NCBI GenBank assembly: GCA_937941455.1
Contig: CALDHM010000029.1
Location: 1 to 64,000 of the forward strand
DNA length: 64,000 nucleotides
Reading direction: 5' to 3'
Source of the DNA: an uncultured Pirellulaceae bacterium
GTDB lineage: Bacteria; Planctomycetota; Planctomycetia; Pirellulales; Pirellulaceae
The notes beneath the pieces were generated by a model. That model ran no database searches. It worked only from the letters and a program-made list of their open reading frames with translations, and had not been told where the DNA came from. A program made the translations under genes and the position numbers. Below are positions 10,547 through 40,641 of this stretch, piece by piece (positions within the stretch are counted from its first letter, which is position 1; the number at the start of each line of letters is the position of its first letter).

Positions 10547-10722
10547 TAGATTTCCTCCTGCTGGGGCTGGTCATGTAAAACAATCGCGGCATCCTGCGAA
10601 ACATCTTCCCGGCGCATCCGCAAGACTCGGTAGCAGACGGCCACGAATACGGCCAGGAAAATGACGAGGCCGATTTCGGGAAATACGGTCAGATCAGTTC
10701 CCGACAAAATCTTTTTGATCAT
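10546..10722 (-). CDS. ccoQ: cbb3 oxidase small subunit IV (CcoQ-like)
   Basis: A 58-residue protein with one membrane helix ([20 protein letters not shown]) and a polar tail ([19 protein letters not shown]), the usual CcoQ pattern. Its ATG overlaps the ccoNO stop by four bases (ATGA), and its stop overlaps the ccoP start by one base, so all three structural genes are tightly coupled. CcoQ stabilises the interaction of CcoP with the core. Identification rests on position, size and topology, since the family has little sequence conservation. Confidence 0.88.
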
Positions 10723-13169: not shown

Positions 13170-14089
13170 CCCCAATCTCCAAGCCTTGATTTTGGTGAAT
13201 ATGTTTGATCCTCGACCAGCAGATGCCGTTACGAAGATCATCGAGAACCAGCCCCGAAACCAAAATGTCGCTCGCGCTGCAAAACGATGTTGGTTTAGAA
13301 GCTGTCTCTTCAGTTGCTACCTTGATTCGCAATTCGCCTGGATTAGCAATTCGCGAATTCATGAATCCCCTCACCAGAAGCAAAGGCAATGCCAATCGCT
13401 TTTCGTGCGACGCTTTGGCGTAATAAACACTCGCCTAAACATCCGTCTTAGGTCGTTCGGCGACGACTTGTCATCAAGGTACCTCGGGATTGGCTCGACC
13501 GCCCGTGCGATTTCGCCTCCTTGAGCAGTGCGATTCCGCACGCTTTGCGATTCCGGAACGCGCCGTGGCGTCGCCAGTCCTCACTCAATTGGGATTCTAC
13601 CACTCCCGACACTCCGTTGGCGGACGCGTCAACGTTGCGTCACGTGCGATGAGGACCCGTGGCACCTATTGCATCGACATGCAGGACAGTCGCCGAATCT
13701 CCGGGCTTTTCCTCCTCATGCACCCTGTGAGTTTGTTATCAGCGGAGCATCGAAATGACGCCGCGGCATTCGATCAAGGTGTGGGTGCGCGAGCCATGTC
13801 GTTGGGCTGCCGCGAGTGGTTCGAATCGCCAAAAACCATGATTCGTGACGGTAGAATTTGCCCGATCAGCGTCTTTTCACGGGGAATTTTGTTTTTTCGC
13901 GTCCTGTTTTCGGCAAATACGGCGATAATTGTCGGTGTGGTGGTAAACTTTCCCATTCTGCAAAGTCGGTCGGATTCCGTCAGTCCGGCGTGGGCCATCC
14001 GGCAGAGGTCGCCGGTTGGTGTAGCACGGACGATCGTGCCGCCGTAAGAATTAGTTTCATCCGCTGCTTCTTAAGTGATTGCCTGTGAC
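13170..14089. other. Divergent intergenic region between ccoNO and the secA-like gene
   Basis: About 0.9 kb that should hold both promoters. An open frame at 13490-14047 has no recognisable domain and atypical composition, and is not called. A 12-bp perfect palindrome AATTCGCGAATT lies at 13348-13359 and could be an operator. No FNR-type TTGAT-N4-ATCAA site was found. Confidence 0.5.
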
Positions 14090-15970
14090 ATGATCGGAAC
14101 CGATGCAGCCTGGTTGTCCGCGACGCATCGCTACGCTGCGCAGTATCGTTCACTTCCCGACAGTAGGTTACGGCAATGCTGCCTCGATCTCGGCGGTGAG
14201 CTCCGTGAGCATCAAAACTTTCGGCTCACCGGACCGAAAATTGCCGCTTTGGTGCAGGTCGCAGCCTCCCGGACGCTCGGGTTGTCGCATTACGACGTTC
14301 AACTGATCGGCGGCAAGCATCTGATTGCGGGGAGTGTCGTCGAAATGCGGACTGGCGAGGGGAAAACGCTGACGGCCGTGATCCCCCTCGTCGCCCATGC
14401 CTTGTTTCGCCGCGGAGCCTTGTTGGCCACCGCCAACGACTACTTGGCTCGTCGCGACGCCGAGTGGAATCGCCCGATCTATGAGCTCCTGGGGTTGTCC
14501 GTCGGTACGATTCAAACCGAGATGGACCGCCGTACGCGTCGCGCCGCTTACGGTTGCGATGTCACCTACGGGACGATGAAGGAATTCGGCTTCGATTTCC
14601 TCCGCGATTATCTCTTCAAAAAAGAGGCGCGGTTCAATGCCGCCGGTGGGCTTACTCAGGCCTTGGCCAGCGGACCGTCCGACGCAGTTCCCGTGCAACG
14701 CGAGCCATACTTTTTGCTAGTCGACGAAGCCGACAACATCTTGATCGATGACGCGCGAACCCCACTCATCCTCAGCGGCACCCAAGATGCCGAGGCGCAA
14801 GCCCGTCAGGCGCAGATCTTCAAATGGAGTGCTGCGGTCGCACATGAATTCAGCGAAGACCAAGACTATCTCTACGACAAAGAGAAACGAAAGGTCGAGC
14901 TCACGATCGAAGGGACGAAGGTCGTTCGCTCGCTCCCCAAACCGGAATCGCTGAAGGGAGTCGGGCTGCTCGAGCTTTACGAGTCGATCGAGCGGGCCAT
15001 CCAGGTCGCCCGCGATTATCTGTTGAATCGCGATTATGTGGTTCAGAACAATGAGATCTTGATTGTCGATGAGTCGACGGGCCGGATTTCGCACGGACGC
15101 CGGTGGAGCCGCGGGATTCACCAAGCGATCGAAGCCAAAGAGGGACTTGAACCGTCGCCCGAGGCCAAAACTCAGGCCAAAATCACGGTCCAGGCCTTTG
15201 TCAACCGCTTTCCCGTTCTGGCCGGAATGACTGGCACCGCCGTCAGCTCAGCGGCCGAATTTCGCAAGGTTTACAACATGCGAGTGCATGTCCTGGCGAC
15301 CAATCGCCCGATTCGACAGGTCACGTTGCCGACGATTGTCTGCCAAACGGAGCAACAAAAATGGGAAGCCATCGTCGCCGAAATTCGCGAGATCTCGCAG
15401 CGAGGCCGACCGGTGCTGGTGGGGACCCGTTCGATTGCCAAATCCGAGATTTTGTCGAGCTTGCTGCAACGCGAGGAAATCATCCACCGGGTGCTCAACG
15501 CGAACCACATCGAAAAAGAGGCCGAGATCATCGCGACGGCGGGAATGAAGGGCCGAGTCACGGTCGCCACCAACATGGCAGGTCGCGGGACCGACATTCA
15601 AATCGATGACGAGGTACGTGCCTTGGGGGGCTTGCATGTCATCGGTACGGAACTGCATGAATCGGTGCGGATCGACCGCCAGTTATTTGGCCGGTGCGCG
15701 CGGCAGGGGGACCCCGGTTCCGTCCGGCAATTCATCGCCCACACGGACAGCCTGCTGGAGGCGGCTTTCGGCGTCGCCAAGGCCAATCGTTACCGCTCGA
15801 CGTACCAGCATCGCTCGGACGCGTGGTGGATCAAGCTGTTCAAGTCGGCCCAAAAGAAACTCGAACGGCGGCACTTCCGCGCCCGTAAAATTCTGATGTA
15901 TAACGAACGTGAAATCACTAAGAACCAGCGCGAGATGGGCTTCGATCCGGTGTTGGATCATATCGACTAG
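14090..15970 (+). CDS. SecA-like ATPase lacking the C-terminal scaffold (accessory SecA paralogue)
   Basis: The motor core of SecA is intact. It has DVQLIGGKHL, Walker A EMRTGEGKTLTAV (about residues 85-97), ANDYLARRDAEW, Walker B LVDEADNILIDDARTPLILS (about 211), the joint to the second motor domain VLAGMTGTA, NMAGRGTDIQ, and the arginine-finger region QLFGRCARQGDPGS. The protein ends about 90 residues later, so the helical wing and most of the helical scaffold of SecA are missing: 627 residues against roughly 840-1000. The tail is basic (KKLERRHFRARKIL). A paralogue with a special substrate is therefore more likely than the housekeeping SecA. Starts are ATG 14090 or GTG 14075, neither with a clear ribosome site. 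The next gene starts 66 bp downstream on the same strand. Confidence 0.88.
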   Translation: MIGTDAAWLSATHRYAAQYRSLPDSRLRQCCLDLGGELREHQNFRLTGPKIAALVQVAASRTLGLSHYDVQLIGGKHLIAGSVVEMRTGEGKTLTAVIPLVAHALFRRGALLATANDYLARRDAEWNRPIYELLGLSVGTIQTEMDRRTRRAAYGCDVTYGTMKEFGFDFLRDYLFKKEARFNAAGGLTQALASGPSDAVPVQREPYFLLVDEADNILIDDARTPLILSGTQDAEAQARQAQIFKWSAAVAHEFSEDQDYLYDKEKRKVELTIEGTKVVRSLPKPESLKGVGLLELYESIERAIQVARDYLLNRDYVVQNNEILIVDESTGRISHGRRWSRGIHQAIEAKEGLEPSPEAKTQAKITVQAFVNRFPVLAGMTGTAVSSAAEFRKVYNMRVHVLATNRPIRQVTLPTIVCQTEQQKWEAIVAEIREISQRGRPVLVGTRSIAKSEILSSLLQREEIIHRVLNANHIEKEAEIIATAGMKGRVTVATNMAGRGTDIQIDDEVRALGGLHVIGTELHESVRIDRQLFGRCARQGDPGSVRQFIAHTDSLLEAAFGVAKANRYRSTYQHRSDAWWIKLFKSAQKKLERRHFRARKILMYNEREITKNQREMGFDPVLDHID

Positions 15971-16036
15971 TTTTCAGGGACTGCCGTTGTTTTACTCTCA
16001 AATCCTTCACGTTAATCAATCCGATCGAGTACTAAA

Positions 16037-18058
16037 ATGTCACAAAATTACTCCGGCAACGCCACAGTCGAGCAAGTCAAACGCGAGGTGCGGCAGACGA
16101 TCGAGGAGCTACGCGAACTCACTCGCTCGGAGATTCCCTTCAACCAATTCTGCGAAACGTTGCTGGCCCGCATCGTCCCGCTAACCGGAGCCTATGGGGC
16201 CATCGTTTGGCAGTTTCAGGGCGAACCGGGATTCGCGCCGATCTTCGGCCATGGGCCTCGCTACCAAGTGATGGCCGCTGAGAACCAGCAGCACCAAGGT
16301 TTATTGTATGAGGTCGGCCGTAACCAGAACGGCTTGAGCGTCCGCAGCGAGGCCGTGTCCGATGCGCCAGAAGCCGCCAACATGCTGCTGATCGCCGTGC
16401 CGATCATGGATCGGCAAAATCGCTTCTGGGGAGTACTCGAACTGCTGCAACGCGCCGAGATCAACCAAGAAACCCAGACGGGATACATGAAGTTCACGTC
16501 CCAACTGGCCAGCTTGTTCGCCCGCTGGCAAGAGCAGCATGACCTGCGGGCAGCCAGCATCTCCGACGAGCAATGGGCCAACCGCGTCACCTTCGTGCGG
16601 GAAATCCACCGCACCATCGACCTCAACGAATGCACCTATGCGATTGCTAACGAGACGAGGCGGCTGCTCAAAGCCGATCGCGTGGTGGTGGCCGTCGAAC
16701 AAGGAGGAAAATACCGAGTCAAGGCGGTCAGCAGCCAAGATCGCTTCGACAACCGGGGCAACGTCGTCAAAAAATTGACACGAGTTATCAACAGCTCGAT
16801 CAAAACCGACACGCCTCTCTGGCTGACTGGCAATACGGACCAACTCCCCCCGAAACTTGCGGGGCAAGTTAACGAGTATTTGGACGAATCGCACAGCCGC
16901 ACCCTGGCCGTCTTGCCGCTGATCGTCGAACCTCCCAAGCCGAGGGACGAATTGACCCGCCGCTCGCGTGGCCGCCCCCGCAAAATCGGCGGTCTCGTCG
17001 TCGAGTACTTCGATCAAGAAGTGGCCGAGGCCGACGTGGAAGGGAGCCTGTCGTTGGTCAAATCGGAATCGACGGTTGCCCTGGAAAATGCCCTGGCGAC
17101 CAACTCCGTATTTTTGCTCCCGCTCTGGAGATCACTGGGTAAACTTCGCGATTTTCTCTGGACGAACTATCGCAAACGAACCATGGCGGCGTTGGTTGCC
17201 TTGGGTCTGCTAACCGCCGCGATGATCCTGTGGCCGATGGATATGAAAATCAAAGTCGATGGGGTGCTGCAACCCGAACTGCGCAAAAACCTGTTCGCCA
17301 AAATGGAGATGGTCGTCAAAACGGTTCATCACGATCACAACGCGAAAGTGCAAGCGGGAGACTTGCTGCTGACGCTCGAATCCGAGCCGCTTGATCAAAA
17401 ACTGATCGAACTGACCGGACAAATCGAAACCTTAAATCAGCAGATCGAGAGCCTGCGGCGGCAGCTGAACCAAGTGGACCGCTTTACCGAAGGCCCCCCC
17501 AATCAAACGGCGTTGCAATTAGCCGCCCAGCTCGATCAACTCGACATCGAACGCCGCGGGGTGCTGGAGCTCAAGCGAAACGTGGAAAAACAACGCGAGG
17601 CGCTCCAGGTCTTCAGCCCGATCAGCGGCACGGTCATGACTTGGGACGCCAAACGAAAACTCGAAGGGCTCCCAGTCCAGTTCGGCCAGCCGCTCCTGTC
17701 GATCGCCGATCTCAACGGCCGGTGGCAAGTAGAATTGCTGATTCCGCAAGCCCGCGCAGGATACATCCGCGATGCCCTGGCACGAGCGGGGGGCAAGGAA
17801 ATCCCGGCCGATTTCTTGTTGGCCACCGACCCCAACACGCGCCACAAGGGGCGCTTGGTGCGGATCTCCGATCGGGCGGAAACCAACGCCAAGGGACTGA
17901 CCGAATTCCGGGCAATCATCGAAATCGATTCGGAAAAATTGAGCGCTCCGCAGGCGGGTGCCGGCGTCGTCGCGCGGGTCAACTGCGGCCCGCAGCCGAT
18001 GGGCTTTGTACTCTTCTATCAAGTGCTCGATTTCCTTCGCACGCGAGTCTTTTTCTAG
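16037..18058 (+). CDS. GAF-domain and HlyD-type membrane-fusion (adaptor) protein
   Basis: Three parts are visible in 673 residues. The N-terminal 380 residues look cytoplasmic, with two GAF-like regions (about 25-165 and 185-360; for example MLLIAVPIMDRQNRFWGVLE). One membrane helix follows at about 383-402 (TMAALVALGLLTAAMILW). The remainder is a periplasmic HlyD/RND-adaptor domain. It has a split biotinyl-lipoyl-like region (VKTVHHDHNAKVQAGDLLL and FSPISGTVMTWDAK) around a coiled coil (about 450-525) and then a beta-barrel. A sensor fused to an export adaptor suggests that export responds to a cytoplasmic ligand. It lies 66 bp after the SecA-like gene and 12 bp before the M50 gene, so the three are probably one operon. 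Confidence 0.85.
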   Translation: MSQNYSGNATVEQVKREVRQTIEELRELTRSEIPFNQFCETLLARIVPLTGAYGAIVWQFQGEPGFAPIFGHGPRYQVMAAENQQHQGLLYEVGRNQNGLSVRSEAVSDAPEAANMLLIAVPIMDRQNRFWGVLELLQRAEINQETQTGYMKFTSQLASLFARWQEQHDLRAASISDEQWANRVTFVREIHRTIDLNECTYAIANETRRLLKADRVVVAVEQGGKYRVKAVSSQDRFDNRGNVVKKLTRVINSSIKTDTPLWLTGNTDQLPPKLAGQVNEYLDESHSRTLAVLPLIVEPPKPRDELTRRSRGRPRKIGGLVVEYFDQEVAEADVEGSLSLVKSESTVALENALATNSVFLLPLWRSLGKLRDFLWTNYRKRTMAALVALGLLTAAMILWPMDMKIKVDGVLQPELRKNLFAKMEMVVKTVHHDHNAKVQAGDLLLTLESEPLDQKLIELTGQIETLNQQIESLRRQLNQVDRFTEGPPNQTALQLAAQLDQLDIERRGVLELKRNVEKQREALQVFSPISGTVMTWDAKRKLEGLPVQFGQPLLSIADLNGRWQVELLIPQARAGYIRDALARAGGKEIPADFLLATDPNTRHKGRLVRISDRAETNAKGLTEFRAIIEIDSEKLSAPQAGAGVVARVNCGPQPMGFVLFYQVLDFLRTRVFF

Positions 18059-18070
18059 GTCCGTTGCCGC

Positions 18071-20317
18071 ATGTCCGTTGCCCACGCTTCCTCAGCACAA
18101 ACGCCCATCCGCCTAAAAATGCGCGGCGATCTGGAGGCCGACCGCCAGCATTACCAGGGGGTCGAGTACTGGGTCATCAAGGAACCGATCGGGCAGAAAT
18201 ACTATCAATTTCCGCCCCATGTCTACTTTTTGCTCAAACAACTCGACGGCGAAATCACCGTCGAAGAACTGCTGGACCGTTATCACCGAGAGCACGCGCC
18301 GAAACGAATCGAACGGCAACAACTGCAACAACTTTTGCAACGCTTCCATCGCGATGGCCTGGTGATTAGCGATGTCCCGGGCCAAGGCATCGAGCTATAC
18401 AAGCGGGGGCAGAAAAACAAACGCCTGGAGCTGTTCTCCAAATTCAGCAACATTCTGGCGATTCGCTTTCGGGGGATCGACCCCGATCGCTTGCTCGATC
18501 GCCTCAACCCGTACACGGCTTGGTTTTTCAGCAAGCCGATGGTGCTGGCCGTCGTGGTGATGGCCCTCGTTGCGTTGTTTTCGGTGCTGGCCAATTGGGC
18601 GGAGTTTCAAGCCAAGCTACCGGGGTTCGAACAATTCTTCGACCTGCGGAAGTGGTATCTCTTCGCCGCCGTCCTCTGCGTTACCAAAATCTGCCATGAA
18701 TTCGGTCATGCCCTGAGCTGCAAGAAGTTGGGAGGAGAGTGCCACGACATCGGGTTCATGCTGTTGGTCTTGACCCCCTGCCTGTATTGCAACGTTTCCG
18801 ATAGTTGGCGTCTACCGAACAAGTGGCATCGGGCGGCAATCGGTGCCGCAGGCATTTACGTCGAGGTGTTTCTCGCGACGATCGCCACTTTCGTCTGGTG
18901 GTTCGTCCAACCGGGCACGCTCCAAGAGATCTGTCTGCAAGTCATGTTGATTTGCAGTGTGAGCACGATCATTTTCAATGGCAATCCGCTCCTTCGCTTC
19001 GATGGTTACTACATCATGAGCGATTTGCTGGAAATCCCGAACTTGCATCAACGCTCCAACAAGGCCTTGACGACGCTGATGTCGCGTCACTGGCTCGGGA
19101 TGCAAGTCCCCGACGATCCACTCCTGCCGCGAAATCGTATGGTGGCGTTCGCGTTATTTACCGTTGCTGCGTTTATCTATCGGTTTCTGGTCTTGTTTTG
19201 GATTTTGATGTTCTTGACCAAATGGCTCGAGCCGTATGGCCTGGAGTCGATCGGGCAGGGGCTGGCTTGGTTTTCGCTGTTGGGTCTGGTCGGCATGCCC
19301 GCCTACAAACTGTATCGTTTTTTTTCTGTTCCCGGCCGGATCATTCAAATGAAAATGAAACGCTTCAGCTTGGTCTCCGTCGTGTTGGTCGCCGTGTTGG
19401 GCGCCGTTCTGTTCGTCCCCTTTCCCAGCTACCTGCACTGCCGAGTCATCGTCGTTCCCAGAACGCTGGAAACCATCTACGCCAGACAAACCGGAACGCT
19501 TGTGGAACTCCCCGTTCGCGCCGGCCAAACAGTCAGCGAGGGTACGTTGCTGGCCCGGCTAGAGAATTTGCCATTGCAGTACGCGCTGAAGGAAAAAGAA
19601 ACGCAACGCGACAAGCTGATCAACCAACGTGACGCCTCGCTGAAATTCGGCATGCTGGGGATTGGCGATGGCCGCATATTGGCCAACGTGTCGGCATTGA
19701 ACGAAGAAATCCGCAAACTCGACAACTCCATCGAATTCGATCGCCGGCAATTGGAATGGCTGCAGGTCCGCAGTCCCGTGGCCGGAACGGTGATCGCGAC
19801 ACCCATGCAGGCAGAATTTCCCGGGCGATTCGACACACCGCTGGACGACCGTCAACCGGTACTGACGGGCGTCCACGAGTACATCCCGATCAAACGGGGC
19901 GAGCGGGTTTGCGAAGTCGCCGATTTGAATCAATGGGAAGCGATTTTTTTGCTGACCGAGCGGCAAGTCAAATTCACACAGCCCGGCCAACCGGCCCGGA
20001 TTCGTCTGCACGCCTACCCTGGCACCACGATCGAAACTCAAATCGGCGCAGTGGGAGTGGCAGATCGTCTCATCCAGCGGCAGGGACGCGATGAGTCCCC
20101 GGAAATTTTACAGTCGAAAATTCGCATTCCCGACCTGATCTCGGAATTGGTGGCTCAGGTCGACCAGGAGTCGGTGCAATACATCGCCAAGGCTCCGCTG
20201 GATTCTCTCACGATCGGCCTGAAAATCGGGCTGGACGGCCAAGGCCGCTTGAAGCTCCCCAATCGCAGTCTGGCCGAGCGGTTTTGGTGGTGGTTTAACG
20301 AGAATTTCGGCTCTTAA
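18071..20317 (+). CDS. PqqD-like / M50 site-2 protease / HlyD-like fusion protein
   Basis: This 748-residue protein starts with a PqqD-like winged-helix region (about residues 15-105, LKQLDGEITVEELLDRYH). The membrane part is an M50 zinc metalloprotease with HEFGH at 209-213 and the third-ligand motif NPLLRFDGYY at about 305-314. The family's conserved CHDIGFMLLVLTPCLYCNVS lies between them. About six membrane helices are present. The C-terminal 300 residues form a periplasmic HlyD-like domain with lipoyl halves (RQTGTLVELPVRAGQTVSEG and VRSPVAGTVIATP) and a coiled coil between. Similar proteins occur with peptide processing or export systems. PqqD folds bind peptide leaders, so cleavage and export of a peptide or protein substrate is a reasonable inference, not shown. 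Confidence 0.88.
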   Translation: MSVAHASSAQTPIRLKMRGDLEADRQHYQGVEYWVIKEPIGQKYYQFPPHVYFLLKQLDGEITVEELLDRYHREHAPKRIERQQLQQLLQRFHRDGLVISDVPGQGIELYKRGQKNKRLELFSKFSNILAIRFRGIDPDRLLDRLNPYTAWFFSKPMVLAVVVMALVALFSVLANWAEFQAKLPGFEQFFDLRKWYLFAAVLCVTKICHEFGHALSCKKLGGECHDIGFMLLVLTPCLYCNVSDSWRLPNKWHRAAIGAAGIYVEVFLATIATFVWWFVQPGTLQEICLQVMLICSVSTIIFNGNPLLRFDGYYIMSDLLEIPNLHQRSNKALTTLMSRHWLGMQVPDDPLLPRNRMVAFALFTVAAFIYRFLVLFWILMFLTKWLEPYGLESIGQGLAWFSLLGLVGMPAYKLYRFFSVPGRIIQMKMKRFSLVSVVLVAVLGAVLFVPFPSYLHCRVIVVPRTLETIYARQTGTLVELPVRAGQTVSEGTLLARLENLPLQYALKEKETQRDKLINQRDASLKFGMLGIGDGRILANVSALNEEIRKLDNSIEFDRRQLEWLQVRSPVAGTVIATPMQAEFPGRFDTPLDDRQPVLTGVHEYIPIKRGERVCEVADLNQWEAIFLLTERQVKFTQPGQPARIRLHAYPGTTIETQIGAVGVADRLIQRQGRDESPEILQSKIRIPDLISELVAQVDQESVQYIAKAPLDSLTIGLKIGLDGQGRLKLPNRSLAERFWWWFNENFGS

Positions 20318-24828: not shown

Positions 24829-27800
24829 ATGAAATTCGAGCTCAATCCTTTGGACGAGTCGTTATTGATCGAATCACTGCAACCGGCCGGTCGTTTATGG
24901 CAGGCGCGCGACGCGATACCGGCCCTCCGCGAATTGCAGCGTGTTAGCCGCAAAAAATCTGCCGAATTTCAGGAAAGTCCCACCAGCGAAAACGACTGGC
25001 TGTTCGCCATCGACGTGATGAATAGCTGCGGGCTGTTCAATCACACCAAGCGGTTGACGCAAATTGCCTTGCGGCAGCACCCCGATTCGGTTTGGTTACA
25101 AATGCTCGAACTTTGGGACGTTGCGGCCGATGGGCTGCTGTTTGAATGCCAACGGCGTTTGGACCGCTTCAGCCCGCACTGGCCCGCCGACTTCGCACCC
25201 CTTCGGTTCGCCTTGCAAACCTACAACTATTCGTTCTCCGGCTGGCGAATTTCGGCAACACAAGCCCATCGCGAGGCCGAGCGAGAAGACCCGGGCACGT
25301 CTCTGTTCGCCTATATCCTGTCGCGGGCGGCGTCGCTGCGATCGGAATGGGAATTGGCGACGCAGTGGGGAGAGCGAGCCGTGGCGCTGGCCCCCCGCTG
25401 GACTCGTGCCCGCACTACGCTGCTGGATTCGATGATCGCCACCGGTCGCTTGGATCGCGCTCGACAATTGATCGCCGAACGCCCCGCCGATGCCCTCCCG
25501 CTGATCTATTTTGACCTAGCGGTAGCCTATGTCCATCAAGCTGCAGGTGACATCGGCCTCGCCATCGACCAGCTACGAAGTCTGCTGAGCACCTGGCCGA
25601 TTCGCTCGCGCTACCAGCGTTTTGCCGCCAGTCAATTGGTCTTGTGGTTGATGATGGAGGGGCATGACGACGAGGCGAAAGGTATTGCGGAGCAATTTCG
25701 ACTCCGCCGATTGAATTTGCAGCGCGATGCCACGCGATCGCGCAAGGCGCTCATCAACCTCCCGCTGGTCTCGCAAGCTCACAATCATTGCGTGCCGACC
25801 GTCGCCGCGATGGTCGCCCAAGCTCAAGGAGTCGCCGCTAGCCCCGCCGAGTACGCAAGCGGTATGCAGACGGCTGACGGCACCCCCTTCTGGCGAATGA
25901 TTCACTACATGAAATCGCAAGGGTTTCAGGCTTATTGCGTGCGGGCCGAGGTGGAACCCGTGCAGCATTTGCTCGATCGCGGCGTGCCACTGATCGGCTC
26001 CCTCGTGGGCTTGTTCTCGTCCCATGTCGACGTCATCTGCGGCTACCACGAGGGCCTGAAATTGTTTCATATCCGCGACCCGATGCATTGGATCAATCGC
26101 AGCATCTTGTTCGACGACCTGGCGTCGAAGTACGAGCACAGCGAGGGGCTGTGGGCCTTCGTTCCGGCCTCCAAGGCCGACAGGATCGAATTGGCCGAGC
26201 CCTGGATCGATCGGGTAGGTGAAGCGATGGTTCGTTTGGCGGCTGCCTGCGCGGCTGGTGATTTAGCGAGCGCCGAAGAAGCCTATCGCCAGATTCCCGA
26301 CGATCATCCGTTGGCATTCCAACGCGACCTGACCAGCGTGGGCATCGTGATTACCCAACGGCAGCTCGAGCAGCATCTGGACAAGTTCGCTGAATGGCAC
26401 GATCATCCGCGGCTGCAACATTTGCAATCGATGCTGATCCGGATCAATGGGCAACATGCCGCCTCGATCTATCAAACGGTCGAGGAGCGGCGAGCCTTTT
26501 TCGGCGAACGATTTGCGGAATACATTCAGACGCAATGCCTGATGGCTCAACTAAAGTGGACGGATGCCGATCAACGCATTCAACAAGTCGCCGAAAACTT
26601 GCCCCAACTCGAATCGATGTGGCGGATCTATTCGGAAATTAAGGAGCAAATGGGGGATTCGGCTCAAGCCATCGCGGCAATCCACCACGCGATCGACATC
26701 GCTCCCGAGGATTATTACTTGCAAGTTCGCCTGGCCGAACTGCAATCCGGAGCGCTGCCCCTGAACGAACGATTAGAAAAGGTCGAAGGCCTGCTCCGGC
26801 AGCATCCCCACCGACGTCGCCTCCACTTCACCCTGGCCGATATTCTCGGCCAACTCGGAGACGGTTTGAAATACGAGGAGGCGATGAAAACCTGTATCAG
26901 CTATTTTCCACGCGATCCCCTCGCCTACCAGCAATTGGCAGGCTGGTACGAGTACCAAGGGCGCGTCGATCTCGCCCGCCCCGTGCTCGAACGCGGGCGG
27001 AGCTTGATCGGCGAGGCAGAGTTGCCGAAATGGAATTTCGAACTGGAGTCGCAACCGGCGGCCGATCCAGTGCCCCAAAATCCGGCACCTAACTCCAGCG
27101 ACGCTGAGGCAGCAACATCTCGTGCGGCATCGGAGGCCGACGCCGCGGTGAATGACACGGCGCCAGCCGCCGCTTCGGCAAGGGCTAGTGGTGCGGCATT
27201 GGACCAAGCATCGGGAATGGCCCAAGGCGCCGCGACCACGGACCAGATCGAAGAGGCCCTGACGATCCTTGCGACTAAATCCTTTGCGGAAGCTTGGGGA
27301 ACACCTGCTGTCCAACGGTCGTTGGCCCTGGACCAACAGTGCGACTTGAGCTGGTCGGCATCGGTTCGCTTTCGCGCCGCGTTGGTCGGCAGCGCCTTGG
27401 AGGATATGGAAAGGGAGCACATCGCCATCGCCACGCGGACCGCGCAACTCCGGCAGGCGTTGCCGGGCCGACACATGCCCGGCATCCCCGAAATCTATGC
27501 GCAACAACTGTTCAATCTCATCGATCGCTATCCGATTTCGTCAACCAGCGCCGAAATTTTGCTGGATTGGCTCGCCGAACATTGTCCCGATCACGCGAAG
27601 CGACCGGAGCTCGAATTCATGCGGGCCTGGCTCCTTGAAAAACGGGGCTATCTCAATGAGGCGGAAACCGTGCATCGGCAGATTACGGAACGTCACCCGG
27701 CATACGCATCTTCGTGGTATCGGCTGGCCCAAATCGCCCAGAGTCGCAACGACCTCAAGAGCGCTTTCGATCTGCTGCTCGAGACCATCGAACTCGCGCC

Positions 27801-29184
27801 GGCAAACGAGGGTGCGTTGTGTTTTCTTGCCAAGTTGGCCCAGTACGCGCGCAGTGATGAAGAGTTCCGCTTCCGGCATCTGCTGACGACGTTGTATCCC
27901 TACAACACCTTTCGGCGTTACGAGGCGGCGCTGGCCAGGACCCGTTGCGAGTCGCTTGACGCTGCGCTGGATTATCTGGCCGAACATCGCCAGCAGATCG
28001 GCCCCGACTACCCGCTGCTCCGCGGCCGTGTGTTGGCGGACCACAGCGAATTCGATCGCGCCCTGGCAGAAATCGCCGATGTTCCCGAATCGACGTTTTC
28101 TCGGCAGATGCTCGATTGGATTCGGGTCGATGCGATGATCGGCAAACGTCAATTCGAGCCGGCCGCGCAACTGCTGGACCAAATGCTGCAGCGGAATCCC
28201 GGCGATGAACTGATCGCCGATCAACTCGCGCGAGCCCTCCAAGAAATTTCCCCTACCAAGGCCAAGGCCTTCTGCCAACAAAAATTGCAGGCAGGCTGCG
28301 CGATTCCCTGGTTAGCGTATCTGCTCCTGTCCGGCTCCCCTGCGCCCGTCGATGCCGCCATGGACATCGTCAGGCAGGTTGACGAGGAGCACCAAGTGGC
28401 GGTCGCGACCGCCATCGCCGATGCGTTCGATTCGAAGGATTTACATCCGCATCTGATCCCCTTCCTGGAACATATCGATCAAAAAATGCCGCATATGGTC
28501 GCTCTCCGTGAACGTCTCGCCTATCGCCTTCAACTGGTCGGTTCGAAGAATCAGGCTGCGAAAATCGCCGAAGATCTGCTGGCCGCCGATCCGGACAATC
28601 CGCGCTGGCTCAAGCTCGCTGGCTATTGCATCCAAGATTCGAATCCTGCCAAGTCAATCGAATACCTCGAAAAGGAATTCTCGATCACTGGCGATGCGGA
28701 ATCTCTTTGCCGACTGGCCCGAGGCTACCAGTTGCATGGCGATCACGAAAAAGCCCAAGCAACCTATTTCCGCGCATTGGAAATCAATCCTTTGGATAGC
28801 CTTGCCATCACGAATCTCGTGTTCCGCTATCGTGTCTATCGTCCCGAGTTGCTTGAGATGTCGAATCGGATCATCGAGATCGGCCAAGGGGCGCGGGATC
28901 AGTATTTCTTGGTGGTCGTCATTGAACTTGCCAAACATTTCAAACGGCAGGTCCCCTTTGCTTGGCACCAGGCCGCCTTGGAGCGGCTCGAGAATCTCAA
29001 AATCGATGGCGGATTTCGCGACGAAGCCGATCGGCTACGTCGGGCGCTGCGGGCGTGGACTGCGGTGTATCCGATCTTGCGCCGATTCCGCACCAACTTT
29101 ATCAGCCGCTGGCTGACCCGCTGGTTTTGGCCACAATGGGATTGGATTCCCCGCTTGGGAAGCAGCGAGAGTACGCCGAAATAG
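24829..29184 (+). CDS. Giant TPR protein with an embedded C39-like cysteine peptidase domain
   Basis: The 1451-residue protein has no signal peptide. Helical TPR-like repeats fill most of it (residues about 50-310, 430-710 and 830-1400; for example KAQATYFRALEINPLDSLAI). A peptidase_C39_2-like domain is inserted at about 310-450: the nucleophile lies in HNHCVPTVAAM (Cys321), His399 in HVDVICGYHE and Asp417 in HIRDP, so the triad is intact. An Ala/Ser-rich linker at about 735-805 is probably disordered. The ATG at 24829 has a GGAG site 8 bp upstream. C39 enzymes cleave double-glycine leaders, but C39-like domains of this kind may act otherwise. The target is unknown. It is a single-gene unit. 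Confidence 0.85.
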   Translation: MKFELNPLDESLLIESLQPAGRLWQARDAIPALRELQRVSRKKSAEFQESPTSENDWLFAIDVMNSCGLFNHTKRLTQIALRQHPDSVWLQMLELWDVAADGLLFECQRRLDRFSPHWPADFAPLRFALQTYNYSFSGWRISATQAHREAEREDPGTSLFAYILSRAASLRSEWELATQWGERAVALAPRWTRARTTLLDSMIATGRLDRARQLIAERPADALPLIYFDLAVAYVHQAAGDIGLAIDQLRSLLSTWPIRSRYQRFAASQLVLWLMMEGHDDEAKGIAEQFRLRRLNLQRDATRSRKALINLPLVSQAHNHCVPTVAAMVAQAQGVAASPAEYASGMQTADGTPFWRMIHYMKSQGFQAYCVRAEVEPVQHLLDRGVPLIGSLVGLFSSHVDVICGYHEGLKLFHIRDPMHWINRSILFDDLASKYEHSEGLWAFVPASKADRIELAEPWIDRVGEAMVRLAAACAAGDLASAEEAYRQIPDDHPLAFQRDLTSVGIVITQRQLEQHLDKFAEWHDHPRLQHLQSMLIRINGQHAASIYQTVEERRAFFGERFAEYIQTQCLMAQLKWTDADQRIQQVAENLPQLESMWRIYSEIKEQMGDSAQAIAAIHHAIDIAPEDYYLQVRLAELQSGALPLNERLEKVEGLLRQHPHRRRLHFTLADILGQLGDGLKYEEAMKTCISYFPRDPLAYQQLAGWYEYQGRVDLARPVLERGRSLIGEAELPKWNFELESQPAADPVPQNPAPNSSDAEAATSRAASEADAAVNDTAPAAASARASGAALDQASGMAQGAATTDQIEEALTILATKSFAEAWGTPAVQRSLALDQQCDLSWSASVRFRAALVGSALEDMEREHIAIATRTAQLRQALPGRHMPGIPEIYAQQLFNLIDRYPISSTSAEILLDWLAEHCPDHAKRPELEFMRAWLLEKRGYLNEAETVHRQITERHPAYASSWYRLAQIAQSRNDLKSAFDLLLETIELAPANEGALCFLAKLAQYARSDEEFRFRHLLTTLYPYNTFRRYEAALARTRCESLDAALDYLAEHRQQIGPDYPLLRGRVLADHSEFDRALAEIADVPESTFSRQMLDWIRVDAMIGKRQFEPAAQLLDQMLQRNPGDELIADQLARALQEISPTKAKAFCQQKLQAGCAIPWLAYLLLSGSPAPVDAAMDIVRQVDEEHQVAVATAIADAFDSKDLHPHLIPFLEHIDQKMPHMVALRERLAYRLQLVGSKNQAAKIAEDLLAADPDNPRWLKLAGYCIQDSNPAKSIEYLEKEFSITGDAESLCRLARGYQLHGDHEKAQATYFRALEINPLDSLAITNLVFRYRVYRPELLEMSNRIIEIGQGARDQYFLVVVIELAKHFKRQVPFAWHQAALERLENLKIDGGFRDEADRLRRALRAWTAVYPILRRFRTNFISRWLTRWFWPQWDWIPRLGSSESTPK

Positions 29185-34969: not shown

Positions 34970-35971
34970 TCAACTCCCTCGATAGATTGCATCCAGCATC
35001 TCCCCTGTCAAAACCACACGCTGCCGCGGTAATTTTTCGATGTCGAAATCCTCGGCGAATTTCGCGGCTGACCGCGGCTTTCCATCATCCAAACCACACC
35101 AGGCCGCGATGGCGCCGATGATCCGCACCGCGGGGACCCCTGCGTCGCGCAGCTCGGAGATCCGCGTCGCCCCATGACGCTTCGCCAGCCGCATGCCGTC
35201 GGTTCCGACAACCAACGGGAGATGCCAATAGGTCAGTTCGCACGGTAGGCCGAGCGCACGTCGCAGCAACCATTGGCGAGCGGTGGACGAGAGGAGATCA
35301 TCACCGCGCACTACGTCGGTGATCCCAGCCGCTTCATCATCGAGATTGACCGCCAGCTGATAACTGGCACAGCCTTGTTTGTTCGCGACCAGAAAATCAC
35401 CGACCTCTTCGGCCACCGAAACACGCTGTCGGCCGAATATCTGATCATCAAACTCGACCGTCTCGTTGGGGGTCCAAAATCGCCACGCCACTCCGCTGGA
35501 CTTCAGACTCACGAAATCGATCGGTTGCCGCGCCGCAGGTCGACAAAAACCGCCATAACACAACTCATGGTCCCCCTCGTTCGGAGCGCTGGCAATCCGC
35601 GCAGCGATTTGGGTGCGCGTGCAGCGACAGGGATAAATCAATCCGGCCGCGGCGAGTCGGATCAACGCCGCCTCATAGTCTGCAAGCCGCCCCGATTGAT
35701 AGTCGATCTCCGTATCCCAATCGAGACCCAACCAGCGCAAATCCTCGATGGCCGCTCGATCGGCACCCGGTTTCGTACGAGGCGAATCCAAATCGTCGAT
35801 CCGAAAGGCGATCCTCCAGCCGCGTTGCCGAGCGAGCGTCCAGGTCACGAGGAACGTGCGGGCGTTCCCCAGATGCAGTCCGCCCGTCGGCGAGGGAGCC
35901 AGTCGAGTGGCCCGTCGCTGCCGCGATCGCGCCGACTCCGCATCGGTACTGCGCACTGAGCAAATCTCCAT
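34970..35971 (-). CDS. gluQ: Glutamyl-Q tRNA(Asp) synthetase
   Basis: A GluRS-like catalytic domain without the anticodon-binding part: RLAPSPTGGLHLGNARTFLV (HIGH-type motif), RIDDLDSPRT, a Cys/Tyr zinc site (YPCRCTR ... ELCYGGFCR), and a degenerate KMSKS region RLAKRHGAT. GluQ attaches Glu to the queuosine base of tRNA-Asp. At 333 residues it is slightly longer than E. coli GluQ (about 300), with a 22-residue N-terminal addition. It starts 10 bp after glnS, so it is the last gene of a synthetase operon. Confidence 0.93.
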   Translation of the reverse strand: MEICSVRSTDAESARSRQRRATRLAPSPTGGLHLGNARTFLVTWTLARQRGWRIAFRIDDLDSPRTKPGADRAAIEDLRWLGLDWDTEIDYQSGRLADYEAALIRLAAAGLIYPCRCTRTQIAARIASAPNEGDHELCYGGFCRPAARQPIDFVSLKSSGVAWRFWTPNETVEFDDQIFGRQRVSVAEEVGDFLVANKQGCASYQLAVNLDDEAAGITDVVRGDDLLSSTARQWLLRRALGLPCELTYWHLPLVVGTDGMRLAKRHGATRISELRDAGVPAVRIIGAIAAWCGLDDGKPRSAAKFAEDFDIEKLPRQRVVLTGEMLDAIYRGS

Positions 35972-35981
35972 GGCTAGGGTA

Positions 35982-37664
35982 TCAGGAATTCTTTTTTTGC
36001 TCCTTGGCCCAAGAGTCTTTGAGAGTCACGGTGCGATTGAAAACCAAGCGCCCAGGAGCCGTTGACTGATCGAGGCAGAAGTAACCCAAGCGTTCGAATT
36101 GGTAGCGATCTTCTAGCTTGGCCGCTGCCAGGCTTGGTTCCAGTTTCGCTCCACGGATCACAACCAAGGAGTTCGGATTCAAATCGGCTTTCCAGTCGCG
36201 ATCCTCGGGAGCCTTCTCGGGTGGATCGAGCAGCAAGTGATCATAGAGGCGAACTTCGGCATCCACCGCGTGAGCCGCGCTGACCCAGTGGATCGTCCCT
36301 TTGACCTTGCGCCCGTCGGGCGCCTTGCCACCGCTGGTCTCCGGGTCGTAAGTGCAACGAAGTTCGATGATTTCGCCCGACTGAGGATCCTTGATCACCT
36401 CACGACATTTCAGGAAGTAAGCATATCGCAAGCGAACCTCGCCACCGGGAACCAAGCGGAAGTAACCCTTGGGCGGATTTTCCATGAAGTCCGATCGCTC
36501 GATGTAAAGCTCGCGACCGAACGGAACCTGACGCGTGCCGCTGGCGGGATCTTCGGGATTGTTCACGAATTCGCGTTGCTCGAATTGCCCCTCAAGATAG
36601 TTCTCGATGACCACCTTCAGCGGCTCGAGGACGGCCATCACTCGGGTTGCGATCCGATTCAAATGCTCGCGGATCTCTTGCTCCAGGACGCCAAAGTCGG
36701 TCACGCTGTTGGCCTTGGTCACCCCGATACGAGCGCAGAAGTTGCGAATGGCTTCAGGCGTGTAACCGCGGCGACGGAGACCGACGATCGTCGGCATCCG
36801 CGGATCGTCCCACCCCGCTACATAGCCCCCCTTGACCAGTTCCAGCAGTCGGCGTTTGCTCATGACCGTGTTGGTCAAGTTCAAACGAGCGAATTCGATC
36901 TGCTGCGGATGGTGAATTCCCAGATTCTCGATGAACCAGTCATACAACGGGCGGTGCTGCTCGAACTCCAATGTGCAAATCGAATGCGTGATCCCCTCCA
37001 GGGAGTCGTTTTGGCCGTGCGTCCAATCGTAGGTCGGATAAATGCACCATTTGTTGCCCGTCCGATGGTGGTGCGCATGCCGGATGCGGTACATGGCGGG
37101 ATCACGCAGATTCATATTGCTGGAGGCCATATCGATCTTGGCCCGCAGCGTGCGGGAACCATCCGGAAATTCGCCATTTTTCATCCGCTCGAACAGGTCG
37201 AGATTTTCTTCGACCGACCGATTGCGGTAGGGACTGTCGCGGCCTGGCTCATTCCACGGCCCGCGATATTTGCCGACCTCTTCAGCGTTCAAATCGCAAA
37301 CATACGCCTTGCCAGCGCGAATCAATTGCACCGCGAATTCGTACAGCCGATCGAAAATATCTGAGGCATACTTAACGTCGCCGTCCCACTGGAACCCCAA
37401 CCAGCGGACATCATCCTTGATGGCCTCCACGAACTCGGTTTCCTCCGTTTCGGGGTTCGTATCGTCGAACCGCAGATTGCACATGCCTCCATAGTCGGCG
37501 GCAATGCCGAAATTCAAACAAATCGACTTGGCGTGGCCGATGTGCAAATAGCCGTTCGGCTCCGGCGGGAAGCGGGTGACGACTCGGCCTTGATTCTTGC
37601 CGCTGCGAATATCTTGTTCGACGATTTGGCGGATGAAGTCGGTCGGTTTGTTTTCTTGGGACAT
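35982..37664 (-). CDS. glnS: Glutaminyl-tRNA synthetase
   Basis: The 560-residue class I synthetase has the GlnRS N-terminus ([11 protein letters not shown]), [20 protein letters not shown] with the HIGH motif, the [12 protein letters not shown] region, [30 protein letters not shown] as the KMSKS motif and two C-terminal beta-barrels ending [22 protein letters not shown] 37664 gives MSQENKPTD; the longer open frame to 37802 overlaps gltX and is unlikely. GlnRS is of eukaryotic origin and is missing from many bacteria, which use GatCAB instead. It is placed between gltX and gluQ. Confidence 0.97.
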
Positions 37665-37713
37665 TGTGAATTCACTGAAACAAAAAATGACACTGCGTTT
37701 AGCGGGCAACTGT

Positions 37714-39285
37714 TTAAACCGGACGACGCGCGCGATCGAGTAAACGTTCGATTCGCTGGAGCGAACGTTCCCGGCCGAGGATGGCCAGCAAGTCGAAGAC
37801 ACTGACTCCCCCCGTTTTTCCCGACAAGGCCAACCGCAACGGGTTCATCAAATCGGCGTGCTTAATCTGCCAAGCTTTAATGAAGTCATTCAAGCCTCGC
37901 TCGAGTTCCGCCGCCGTGAATGGCTCGCACACGCGGAGCACCTTGCTGTATTCGAATAATCGATGCCCCACCTCCGGTTGGCCCGCCACACGTTTCTCGA
38001 AGGCTTTTTCATCGATCACCAGCTCCTCGTCTTCGACGAAAAACTCTTCAAATTTCAGGATATCGCCGAAGACTGCAAGCCGATCCCCTAAGGCGCTGAT
38101 GACGCGGCCCACGTATTCGCGAATTTCCGCCGAGTCGTTCCGTACGTAGCGGGCCTGCTGGAGAAAGGGCATGACCCCGGCGATTTTTTCGTAAAGCGGC
38201 AAGCGATGCATGTAACGCTGCTGGAACGCGATCAACTTTGCCGGGTCGAAACTCGCCTCGCTCTTGACGACACGATCCAAACTGAATTTTTCAATCATTT
38301 GCTCCCGAGTGAATTCCTCCGTATGGTCATCCAGAGACCAGCCGAGGAGGAGCAAATAATTCAAAATCGCCTCGGGCAGATAGCCCACCTTCTCGTAAAA
38401 CTCGACCAATACCGGATTGAATGTCTCCGGGCTGGTTGCCAAGCCGAGCCTATCGGCAATCACCAGCGCCGAATCCATCAGCGATTTGAAATCTTTGTTC
38501 TTGAGATATTGTTCGATTTTTCGTTTGCTCATCTTCGCCTTGCTGCCCGGCTCCGCAACGAACGGAATATGGCCATAAATGGGCAAAGGGTACCCCAGAG
38601 CGCGGGCAATAAAAATCTGCCGCGGTGTGTTGCTGAGATGCTCGATCGCGCGGACGACATGCGTGATTTGAAAATCGTAGTCGTCGACCACGCTGGCCAA
38701 ATGATACAGGCACGTCCCGTCGTTCCGCTGGATGACGTGGTCTTGCTCGCGAATCCATTCGAAAGACACCGGTCCGCGAATCGCATCATGAAACTCACAG
38801 ACGCCCTCGCGTGGCATCTTCAGACGAACAATCGCCGCGCGGCCCTCGGCCTCGAACCGAGCCGCTTGCTCATCGGTCTCCGCCATCCAACGACGGCTGT
38901 AAATGAAGTCCCGTTTCTCCCGTTCAGCGGCGGTTCGCTCAGCGGCCGTTTCCTCGGGGGTCGCATAATCGCGATAGGCCGCGCCGCACGCAAGCAGCTG
39001 TTGCACCGCTTCGCGATATCGCGGCTGACGTTGCGCTTGGAAGTAAGGGGCATAGGGCCCGCCAACCTCTGGCCCTTCGTCCCAGTCGATCCCCAACCAG
39101 CGGAACCCATCGAGAATCGGCTGCAACGCCTCCTCTTGATTCCGAGCGGCATCGGTGTCGTCGATTCGCAGAATGAATTGACCGCCCGTTTGCCGCGCGA
39201 GGATCCAATTGAACAGCGCCGTTCGCACGCCCCCGATGTGCAGGTAGCCGGTCGGACTGGGAGCGAAACGCGTGCGAATTTTCAT
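37714..39285 (-). CDS. gltX: Glutamyl-tRNA synthetase
   Basis: The 523-residue class I synthetase shows [31 protein letters not shown], the KMSKR motif ([14 protein letters not shown]), and a C-terminal anticodon-binding helical domain ending in [15 protein letters not shown]. The zinc-binding cysteines of the E. coli enzyme are not seen, as in many bacterial GluRS. It charges tRNA-Glu. It is the first synthetase of the three, with glnS starting 49 bp after its stop. Confidence 0.97.
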
Positions 39286-39390: not shown

Positions 39391-40641
39391 TCATGCAGCT
39401 CGACGCGCCGCCGCTTGCTGTTTGCGCAGCTTCCGCCGTTCCGCTTTGGAAAGGCGAACGGAGCCGTTTTCGTGACGATCTTCTTCCTCGTCCGCCGAAT
39501 CAACGCCGGGAGCTTCCTTCGGCTTCATTTTCGAACTGAGTGGCCCGGCATTCGCCGCCGCGGTTCGCGTCGTGTCAGAGGGGGAACTGCCACGCGTTTT
39601 AGAGGTTTGGTGCGCGGCGGCGATTTCGTGTGCGTCGCGCGACGAATCCGTCTGGTCCTGATCGGCGGCCTCATCCGTCGATTGATCGCGCTCGTTGCTG
39701 GTCTTAGCGCGCGTAACTCTGGCTGTTCGCTTTTTCGATCCCGCTTTCGACGAACCGCCGCGCCCGGCTGATTTCTTTTTTATTTTGCTGACAGGCAAGG
39801 CAATCAAACCGTTCGACGTGAGGAACAGATAGCGGGAGTAAATCACCAAGGCGACAAATAACGCCAGATGAGCCGTCCAAATCGTGTTCCCTTGAACGAT
39901 CTCGGTTTTGTCCAACCCATATTCCATCATTTTCGCTTGAACTTGGGGGAGCCTGATGATGAGAGCGATGACATAGATCAACCACGCTACACAAACCATG
40001 CTCAACGTTCCTCGCGACGCGCGGACCTCGACCAAGCCGCGCAGAAAGATACCCGCCAAAGCAGCGAGGGCCAAACCTGTAAACCACATCGAATTCGACG
40101 TCCGCAGTGAACTGGTCGAGACCAACCACGTCACGACCTCCCCGAGATCAACGATGCAGTGCAGGCTTGCCAGTAATAGAATTCCCGCAAAGAGCAACCA
40201 CACGCGGTAGGTCCCTTGGTAGTCATCCTGCCGATGCTGGCGAATCGCATAGATCTGAAGACTGGCCAAACAGCAAGCCATCATGACCAGGGACGAACAC
40301 CAGGACGATAAGCTGCCCGTGCCGATCAAGGCAAATTTATCAGCAATCTCAGGGGGGGCGACGCGCGTGACCATGTGCAAGGCGTTAATCACGCCGACAA
40401 GCAACCCGGCCGCCAAAACCAACAACGCGATTGCCCACGGACGCTTGGGAATCAAATCCGTGATGCGCGGCTGACTTAAGTGGCTGGCGCGGCGATTGTA
40501 AAGGCGAGGTGAGGCTGCGCGGGCCTTGGATTTTTTCTTCGTTGTCGCCAACTCGCTGTGCGGCTGATGCTCGCTGTCTTCGGCATCATGCAGGACACCA
40601 TCCATGACGACTCGACGGCGCCGTTGATCGTTCCTGGCCAC
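39391..40641 (-). CDS. Membrane protein with charged cytoplasmic tails, unknown function
   Basis: About 70 polar, basic residues are followed by six or so membrane helices (residues about 70-280; WAIALLVLAAGLLVGVINAL, ILLLASLHCIVDLGEVVTWL). A highly charged tail of about 130 residues rich in Lys, Arg, Ser and Asp follows, ending in KAERRKLRKQQAAARRAA. The family is not recognised. A GTG start at 40641 and an ATG at 40605 are both possible; the N-terminal region is poorly conserved-looking, so the start is uncertain. It lies 105 bp upstream of gltX on the same strand and could be co-transcribed. Confidence 0.7.
   Translation of the reverse strand: MARNDQRRRRVVMDGVLHDAEDSEHQPHSELATTKKKSKARAASPRLYNRRASHLSQPRITDLIPKRPWAIALLVLAAGLLVGVINALHMVTRVAPPEIADKFALIGTGSLSSWCSSLVMMACCLASLQIYAIRQHRQDDYQGTYRVWLLFAGILLLASLHCIVDLGEVVTWLVSTSSLRTSNSMWFTGLALAALAGIFLRGLVEVRASRGTLSMVCVAWLIYVIALIIRLPQVQAKMMEYGLDKTEIVQGNTIWTAHLALFVALVIYSRYLFLTSNGLIALPVSKIKKKSAGRGGSSKAGSKKRTARVTRAKTSNERDQSTDEAADQDQTDSSRDAHEIAAAHQTSKTRGSSPSDTTRTAAANAGPLSSKMKPKEAPGVDSADEEEDRHENGSVRLSKAERRKLRKQQAAARRAA

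What the first reader, a model, noticed from the sequence alone, without database searches (positions are those of the whole stretch)
24829..29184. 1451-residue TPR protein containing an intact C39-like catalytic triad
Cys321, His399 and Asp417 lie in motifs that match peptidase_C39_2, set inside a long TPR scaffold without a signal peptide or ABC domain. C39 peptidases are usually fused to ABC exporters. A stand-alone one on a protein-binding scaffold suggests a selective cytoplasmic processing enzyme. It lies 4.5 kb downstream of the M50/HlyD locus.
Basis: partly seen in the sequence, partly recalled or inferred. Interest (0 to 1): 0.55.

Follow-up and report, generated by a model that had tools for sequence, protein, structure and literature searches.

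The report
TPR-scaffolded C39-like cysteine protease
A large bacterial protein carries an intact papain-type cutting domain set inside long protein-binding repeat arrays; relatives with the same layout occur in other planctomycetes and a few other bacteria, so it is probably a real and little-described type of internal protease whose target is unknown.

Summary
Window 24829-29184 encodes 1451 aa with Gln316, Cys321, His399 and Asp417 in a Peptidase_C39_2 domain (E 1e-6). It lies between helical repeat arrays, without signal peptide, membrane span or ABC domain. AlphaFold2 gives the domain a confident papain-like fold (pLDDT 90.6); best solved matches are PCAT1, PeiR and ComA. In 61 sequences, query included, Gln and Cys are always kept; His and Asp/Glu are kept in the 60 that can be read. 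The layout recurs in two clades: A (the query's; planctomycete MAGs, a Calditrichaceae MAG, Achromobacter, Bordetella) and B (Planctomycetota). In one close pair the domain has dN/dS about 0.03, against 0.14-0.15 in the flanking repeats. No conserved neighbour gene or nearby double-glycine precursor was found; the M50/HlyD link is only proximity. Most likely it is a cytosolic peptidase whose repeats choose the substrate. Activity, location and substrate are untested. It is a new architecture of a known peptidase fold, not a new kind of enzyme.

The parts
24829..29184 (+). Coding sequence, 1451 aa plus stop: helical repeats - C39-like peptidase - TPR - linker - TPR
   Evidence: start supported by homologues
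24829..25713 (+). N-terminal TPR-type helical array, aa 1-295
   Evidence: 17 helices of 4 or more residues up to residue 289 in the AlphaFold2 model, whose Foldseek matches are TPR and other helical-repeat proteins; TPR hits at the same place in relatives; no Pfam TPR hit shown here for the query itself
25744..26178 (+). C39-like (papain-fold) peptidase domain, aa 306-450
   Evidence: Pfam PF13529; AlphaFold2 pLDDT 90.6; Foldseek and VIA-align
25774..25776 (+). Gln316 codon, likely oxyanion-hole residue
   Evidence: 61 of 61 sequences, query included; role inferred from papain-type peptidases (recalled)
25789..25791 (+). Cys321 codon, likely catalytic nucleophile; N-terminus of a helix in the model
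   Evidence: 61 of 61, query included; helix 321-332
26023..26025 (+). His399 codon, likely catalytic
   Evidence: 60 of 60 readable, query included; strand 398-407
26077..26079 (+). Asp417 codon, likely third catalytic residue (motif RDP)
   Evidence: 55 Asp and 5 Glu of 60 readable; just after strand 412-416
26179..27048 (+). Middle TPR array, aa 451-740; ends about where the 748-777 aa proteins of Achromobacter/Bordetella end
   Evidence: TPR-type matches within 587-716, below cut-off, and TPR hits at 598-638 in the relative L133; helices up to residue 558 of the 560 modelled; lengths, alignments end at query residue 724-746
27049..27438 (+). Poorly conserved linker, aa 741-870, partly Ala/Pro-rich
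   Evidence: sequence; mean pairwise identity 0.12 in six full-length clade A proteins
27439..29058 (+). C-terminal TPR array, aa 871-1410
   Evidence: Pfam TPR hits above cut-off; not modelled
29059..29181 (+). C-terminal tail with a W-[IV]-P motif found in 6 of 6 full-length clade A proteins aligned, query included

Best explanation
It is a cytosolic cysteine peptidase of the C39-like (papain) fold built into a TPR solenoid. The N-terminal and middle TPR arrays hold the domain and probably bind a protein substrate or adaptor. The Cys321-His399-Asp417 site, with Gln316 as oxyanion residue, then cuts the bound protein, probably at one or few sites. The C-terminal TPR array on its flexible linker would add a second binding surface; it is absent from the shorter Achromobacter/Bordetella forms. 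Shown: the sequence, the conserved active-site residues, the predicted fold and the recurring layout. Inferred: that it cuts peptide bonds, that the TPRs choose the substrate, and that it stays in the cytosol.
For: PF13529 above its cut-off. AlphaFold2 model of aa 1-560 with pLDDT 90.4 and pTM 0.86, and of the domain alone with 90.6. Foldseek E 3e-7 to PCAT1, 5e-7 to PeiR, 7e-7 to ComA; VIA Z 17.3 PeiR, 15.6 staphopain, 15.5 ComA, 15.2 for 6mpz. Query included: Gln and Cys in 61 of 61, His in 60 of 60, Asp 55 / Glu 5 of 60. Cys-His spacing 78 in 13 of 14 clade A rows (79 in one) and His-Asp spacing 18 in 51 of 51 clade A and B rows. The domain is the most conserved segment (0.44 mean pairwise identity against 0.25-0.30 for the repeat arrays). 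In the close pair G018/G519 its dN/dS is 0.006/0.188, against 0.027/0.190 and 0.018/0.122 in the adjoining repeats (one pair). TPR scaffolds that feed proteases are known: LbcA-CtpA and NlpI-Prc (PMC8764530, passages); LbcA is among the Foldseek matches of the TPR part (rank 15).
Against: No activity or substrate is known. The same fold also carries isopeptidases and transpeptidases (PeiR, phytochelatin synthase) and an acyltransferase (BtrH, PMC10318531), so peptide-bond cleavage is not proved. No conserved neighbour gene names the substrate. Cytosolic location rests only on the lack of a signal. The gene is missing from most genomes searched, so any role is dispensable for the group.
Confidence: 0.55

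Rival explanations
1. The domain is catalytic but does other chemistry of the same fold: isopeptide cleavage, transpeptidation or acyl transfer on a protein or small molecule held by the TPRs.
For: The highest VIA score is the pseudomurein endoisopeptidase PeiR (Z 17.3); phytochelatin synthase Alr0975 scores 13.8. BtrH acyltransferase is described as closely related to C39 and C70 in PMC10318531 (passages).
Against: The three Pfam families matched by the domain at E 0.1 are all peptidase models (C39_2 in 13 of 13 domain sequences, C70 in 13 of 13, C39 in 3 of 13); TPRs suggest a protein partner.
Confidence: 0.25
2. It removes double-glycine leaders from peptides, as the C39 domains of peptidase-containing ABC exporters do, with the exporter encoded elsewhere.
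For: The fold matches PCAT1, ComA and the double-glycine protease 6mpz best or nearly best.
Against: No small ORF with the leader pattern in window 13001-42000, but ten base shuffles gave only 0 to 3, so this test is weak. The genome's one PF03412 match is an ABC exporter beside an RTX protein and, by eye, lacks the catalytic Cys. No conserved neighbour, transporter or other, in the stretches compared.
Confidence: 0.07
3. It is an injected effector, toxin or anti-phage defence protein.
For: Patchy presence (9 of 241 genomes of the taxonomic family, own included); C39-like toxin domains are described in PMC3482391 (passages); one relative (L138) lies about 5.7 kb from a CRISPR-like array.
Against: No PADLOC match for 4 of 5 proteins scanned; the fifth, a clade B member, has two weak matches in its C-terminal TPRs. 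The gene sits among recA, AlaRS, RluD-like and PfkB genes. No conserved neighbour. No match in plasmids.
Confidence: 0.08
4. It is a pseudoenzyme: the papain fold serves only as a binding module.
For: Dead C39-like domains exist in HlyB-type exporters (recalled; the own-genome exporter looks like one).
Against: The active-site residues are kept in 60 of 60 readable sequences, query included, and the domain is the most constrained part.
Confidence: 0.04

Closest known systems
Peptidase_C39_2 (Pfam PF13529)
   Same: Best family match of the domain, above cut-off; same Gln-Cys-His-Asp order and papain fold
   Different: Described as single-domain peptidases with extra decorations (PMC10318531, passages); here the domain is embedded in TPR arrays
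C39 peptidase domains of ABC exporters (PCAT1, ComA, 6mpz; MEROPS C39, PF03412)
   Same: Fold and active-site layout; Foldseek E down to 3e-7
   Different: No ABC domain, and no exporter or leader peptide found nearby; the query domain does not match PF03412 at E 0.1
PeiR pseudomurein endoisopeptidase
   Same: Highest structural score (Z 17.3, rmsd 2.2, 138 aligned) and the best PDB sequence-profile hit (E 4e-4)
   Different: Acts on archaeal cell wall and has no TPR (recalled)
PA2778 family cysteine peptidase (NCBIfam NF033920)
   Same: C39 and TPR in one protein
   Different: 255 positions in all; the query matches only positions 166-255, with its TPR part, 32.7 bits against a cut-off of 150. 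Two proteins met here (L151, L152; the PA2778 label is my inference from layout, not scanned) have C39 before TPR, look like lipoproteins and lack the Asp
LbcA-CtpA and NlpI-Prc
   Same: TPR partner thought to deliver substrates to a protease (PMC8764530, passages)
   Different: Separate proteins of the cell envelope, and CtpA has a Ser-Lys-Gln site; an analogy of mechanism only

Membership tests
Peptidase_C39_2 (PF13529) | HMM score above the gathering cut-off | tested here: met
   29.8 bits for the whole protein, 35.3 for the domain alone, cut-off 24
Peptidase_C39_2 (PF13529) | Gln, Cys, His, Asp active site | tested here: met
Peptidase_C39_2 (PF13529) | Papain-like fold | tested here: met
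   predicted model only
Peptidase_C39_2 (PF13529) | Peptidase activity | not testable with these tools
   needs purified protein
C39 of peptidase-containing ABC exporters (PF03412) | Fusion to an ABC transporter | tested here: not met
   no ABC match in P0001
C39 of peptidase-containing ABC exporters (PF03412) | PF03412 match | tested here: not met
   no hit for the query domain at E 0.1; hits in 3 of 13 domain sequences, best E 6e-4
C39 of peptidase-containing ABC exporters (PF03412) | Double-glycine precursor nearby | tested here: inconclusive
   none in 29 kb around the gene by a simple pattern of little power; precursors elsewhere are not excluded
PA2778 family (NF033920) | Full-length match above the cut-off | tested here: not met
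   32.7 of 150 bits, only positions 166-255 match
Peptidase_C70 (AvrRpt2) | PF12385 score above the cut-off | tested here: inconclusive
   13.7 bits whole protein, 19.1 domain alone, cut-off 19; C39_2 scores higher
TPR proteins | TPR HMM matches above the cut-off | tested here: met
   TPR_14 70.1 bits against 23.5 and five more TPR models above cut-off; the best stretches shown lie C-terminal to the C39 domain
Known anti-phage defence systems (PADLOC) | Model match | tested here: not met
   0 families for P0001 at E 0.001

The most novel reading that the evidence does not exclude
A family of self-contained bacterial 'solenoid proteases' in which TPR superhelices on both sides select one cytosolic target and switch on an embedded papain-like domain: a papain-fold counterpart, in logic, of separase or the CRISPR TPR-protease Csx29 (both recalled). 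It would act in planctomycete cell regulation, with a shorter core form in Burkholderiales.
Probability: 0.2. Interest if true: 0.7.

Novelty: new variant of a known kind. Interest (0 to 1): 0.42.

Why it matters
Cytosolic proteases of narrow specificity are few in bacteria (recalled). A family with a strictly kept active site inside protein-binding repeats points to an unknown regulatory or maturation cleavage in Planctomycetota. The roughly 750-aa core found in strain (non-MAG) records of Achromobacter and Bordetella gives a form short enough to express and test.

Tried and rejected
Operon or partner from synteny. I compared 49 fetched stretches plus a 40-kb window stretch with a crude longest-ORF caller, which misses genes in high-GC DNA. 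No neighbour family recurred in more than 6 loci, and that one is a PQQ-type beta-propeller. Own genome and G033 share a downstream block (416-aa unknown, FAA hydrolase, GGDEF), which suggests vertical descent, not function.

M50/HlyD link. Rejected: the genes between run the other way, and no such genes recur beside relatives.

Self-cleavage in the linker. I saw no shared site by eye in the linker sequences printed; the linker is the least conserved part. Not excluded.

Foldseek with the aa 1-560 model returned TPR or other helical-repeat proteins in the 50 rows shown, so the domain was modelled alone.

Viral relatives: the scan with A1 could not run and was not repeated. Plasmids: no match.

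Papers: searches listed no paper that I recognised as being on a TPR-C39-TPR family. Only an open-licence library was searched. Read as passages: PMC10885120, PMC3482391, PMC10318531, PMC8764530, PMC4631099. The rest were seen as listings only.

Results against: the gene is absent from most genomes searched, even within its genus (no match in G001-G003, two of them under 90% complete; G004 has the clade B form). Single copy is not strict: G123 has two long frames and several other genomes list two or three matches.

Rows dropped: four of 50 stretches gave no gene. L029 comes from the G018 contig that matches only the C-terminal half. L095, L097 and L112 were missed by my ORF caller and recovered. 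L063 has no alignment past the Cys part, so His and Asp cannot be read. Matches that got no locus and no fetched stretch were not checked for the triad. Two PA2778-like rows are left out of the 61. Of the 61, one is the query and L028/L117 are near-copies. The eight planctomycete loci have the contig lengths of genomes already met, so they are counted once.

Full report
What is there. The frame 24829-29184 (+) encodes 1451 aa. Pfam finds a Peptidase_C39_2 domain at residues 310-419 (E 1e-6, 29.8 bits, cut-off 24) and TPR repeats above cut-off C-terminal to it. The N-terminal 295 residues are a helical array called TPR from the model and from TPR hits at that place in relatives; one search shows no Pfam TPR hit there for the query itself. 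Homologues begin with the same MKFEL-type N-terminus, so ATG 24829 is the likely start. There is no signal-like or membrane stretch: the most hydrophobic 19-mer (mean 1.63) starts at residue 386, at a strand of the domain.

Fold. AlphaFold2 on aa 1-560 with 13 sequences gave pLDDT 90.4 and pTM 0.86. The domain alone gave pLDDT 90.6 and pTM 0.87. Cys321 opens a helix, His399 lies in a strand and Asp417 follows the next strand, the papain arrangement. Foldseek against the PDB gave PCAT1 (3e-7), PeiR (5e-7), ComA (7e-7) and 6mpz (3e-6). VIA-align gave PeiR Z 17.3, staphopain 15.6, ComA 15.5, 6mpz 15.2, the C39-like 3erv 14.8 and phytochelatin synthase Alr0975 13.8. Rows within 1 Z are ties. These are predicted models; I did not have coordinates, so active-site geometry and access were not measured.

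Relatives. Searching 60 related genomes with the whole protein gave full-length relatives and C39-only matches in long frames. Two groups emerged. Clade A (query-like) was found in 9 of 241 genomes of the taxonomic family, own genome included. A pattern scan of named genomes gave 44 pattern matches and 12 relatives: eight planctomycete MAGs (the same contigs, by length, as), one Calditrichaceae MAG (1393 aa), Achromobacter sp. HZ34, Bordetella sp. LUAb4 and Achromobacter aloeverae. The last three have ORFs of 748-777 aa and align to the query only up to residue 724-746, so aa 1-745 looks like a separable core. In 151 genomes of the family of Achromobacter HZ34, 6 matched: 4 with 771-801 aa frames and 2 short PA2778-like proteins. 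Clade B proteins (mostly 1600-1800 aa, some about 720 aa) have the same order. The C39 profile matched 56 of 294 genomes drawn from the phylum at E 1e-5, including short weak matches, and 16 of 296 from the order at E 1e-10; these draws overlap. In the C39 tree, clade A (14 rows) has support 99 and the main clade B set (35 rows) 89; the two about-720-aa rows (L110, L111), which I count with B, are not placed with support (quick method, 206 columns). Of 12 genomes checked, 9 matched and each has one copy, A or B; the own genome has one. At least one genome, G123, has two long ones.

Active site. In the 51 clade A and B rows (query included) plus 10 more stretches, Gln and Cys are present in 61 of 61, His in 60 of 60 readable, and the third residue is Asp in 55 and Glu in 5 of 60. 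In six full-length clade A proteins, query included, the domain has mean pairwise identity 0.44, the repeat arrays 0.25-0.30 and the linker 0.12. In the close pair G018/G519 the domain has dN 0.006 and dS 0.188 over 146 codons, against 0.027/0.190 over 285 and 0.018/0.122 over 298 codons in the repeats. This is one pair and a simple count (NG86).

Context. Upstream lie a PfkB and an RluD-like gene on the other strand; downstream are recA and alanyl-tRNA synthetase. No neighbour family recurs in more than 6 of the 50 stretches compared. Own genome and G033 share a downstream block, which suggests vertical descent there. The own genome has no other C39_2 match and one PF03412 match, an ABC exporter beside an RTX protein that by eye lacks the catalytic Cys. 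No double-glycine leader ORF was found in 29 kb, a weak test. PADLOC gave nothing for the query and plasmids no match.

Mechanism. The best reading is a cytosolic TPR-guided cysteine peptidase. TPR proteins that feed substrates to proteases exist as separate partners, LbcA-CtpA and NlpI-Prc (PMC8764530, passages). Here scaffold and protease would be one chain. Cleavage, location and substrate are inferred. Other chemistry of the same fold is the main rival.

Novelty. PMC10318531 (passages) describes C39 as ABC-fused and C39_2 as single-domain peptidases. The searches listed under Tried and rejected, in an open-licence library only, listed no paper that I recognised as being on TPR-C39-TPR proteins. 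I call it a new variant of a known kind, interest 0.42.

Noticed in passing
window 14075-20317 (+): Three same-strand genes: a short SecA-like protein (631 aa), a GAF-HlyD protein and an M50-HlyD protein. All 30 related genomes searched have a SecA-type match at E 1e-60; most list a short frame (roughly 570-900 aa) besides a longer one of about 1140-1300 aa that is probably true SecA. Possibly a separate export system; one paper search found nothing. Neighbours of the relatives were not looked at.
   Followed up: partly
window 10719-13241 (-): One frame carries both a COX1 and a FixO domain, which looks like a CcoN-CcoO fusion of cbb3 oxidase.
   Followed up: no
window 34970-39285 (-): Three tRNA-synt_1c genes in a row (333, 606 and 523 aa).
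   Followed up: no
L138:10225-11695: CRISPR-like array (19 copies, spacing 72-80) about 5.7 kb from the TPR-C39 gene of the Calditrichaceae MAG; probably coincidence.
   Followed up: partly
L155:2050-8613 (own genome, contig C7): RTX protein, ABC exporter whose C39 domain by eye lacks the catalytic Cys, and HlyD: a likely type 1 secretion locus.
   Followed up: partly
window 29059-29181: A W-[IV]-P motif near the C-terminus in 6 of 6 full-length clade A proteins, query included, role unknown.
   Followed up: no
window 39391-40641 (-): 416-aa protein with no Pfam match at E 1e-4, kept with FAA hydrolase and GGDEF genes downstream of the relative in G033.
   Followed up: no
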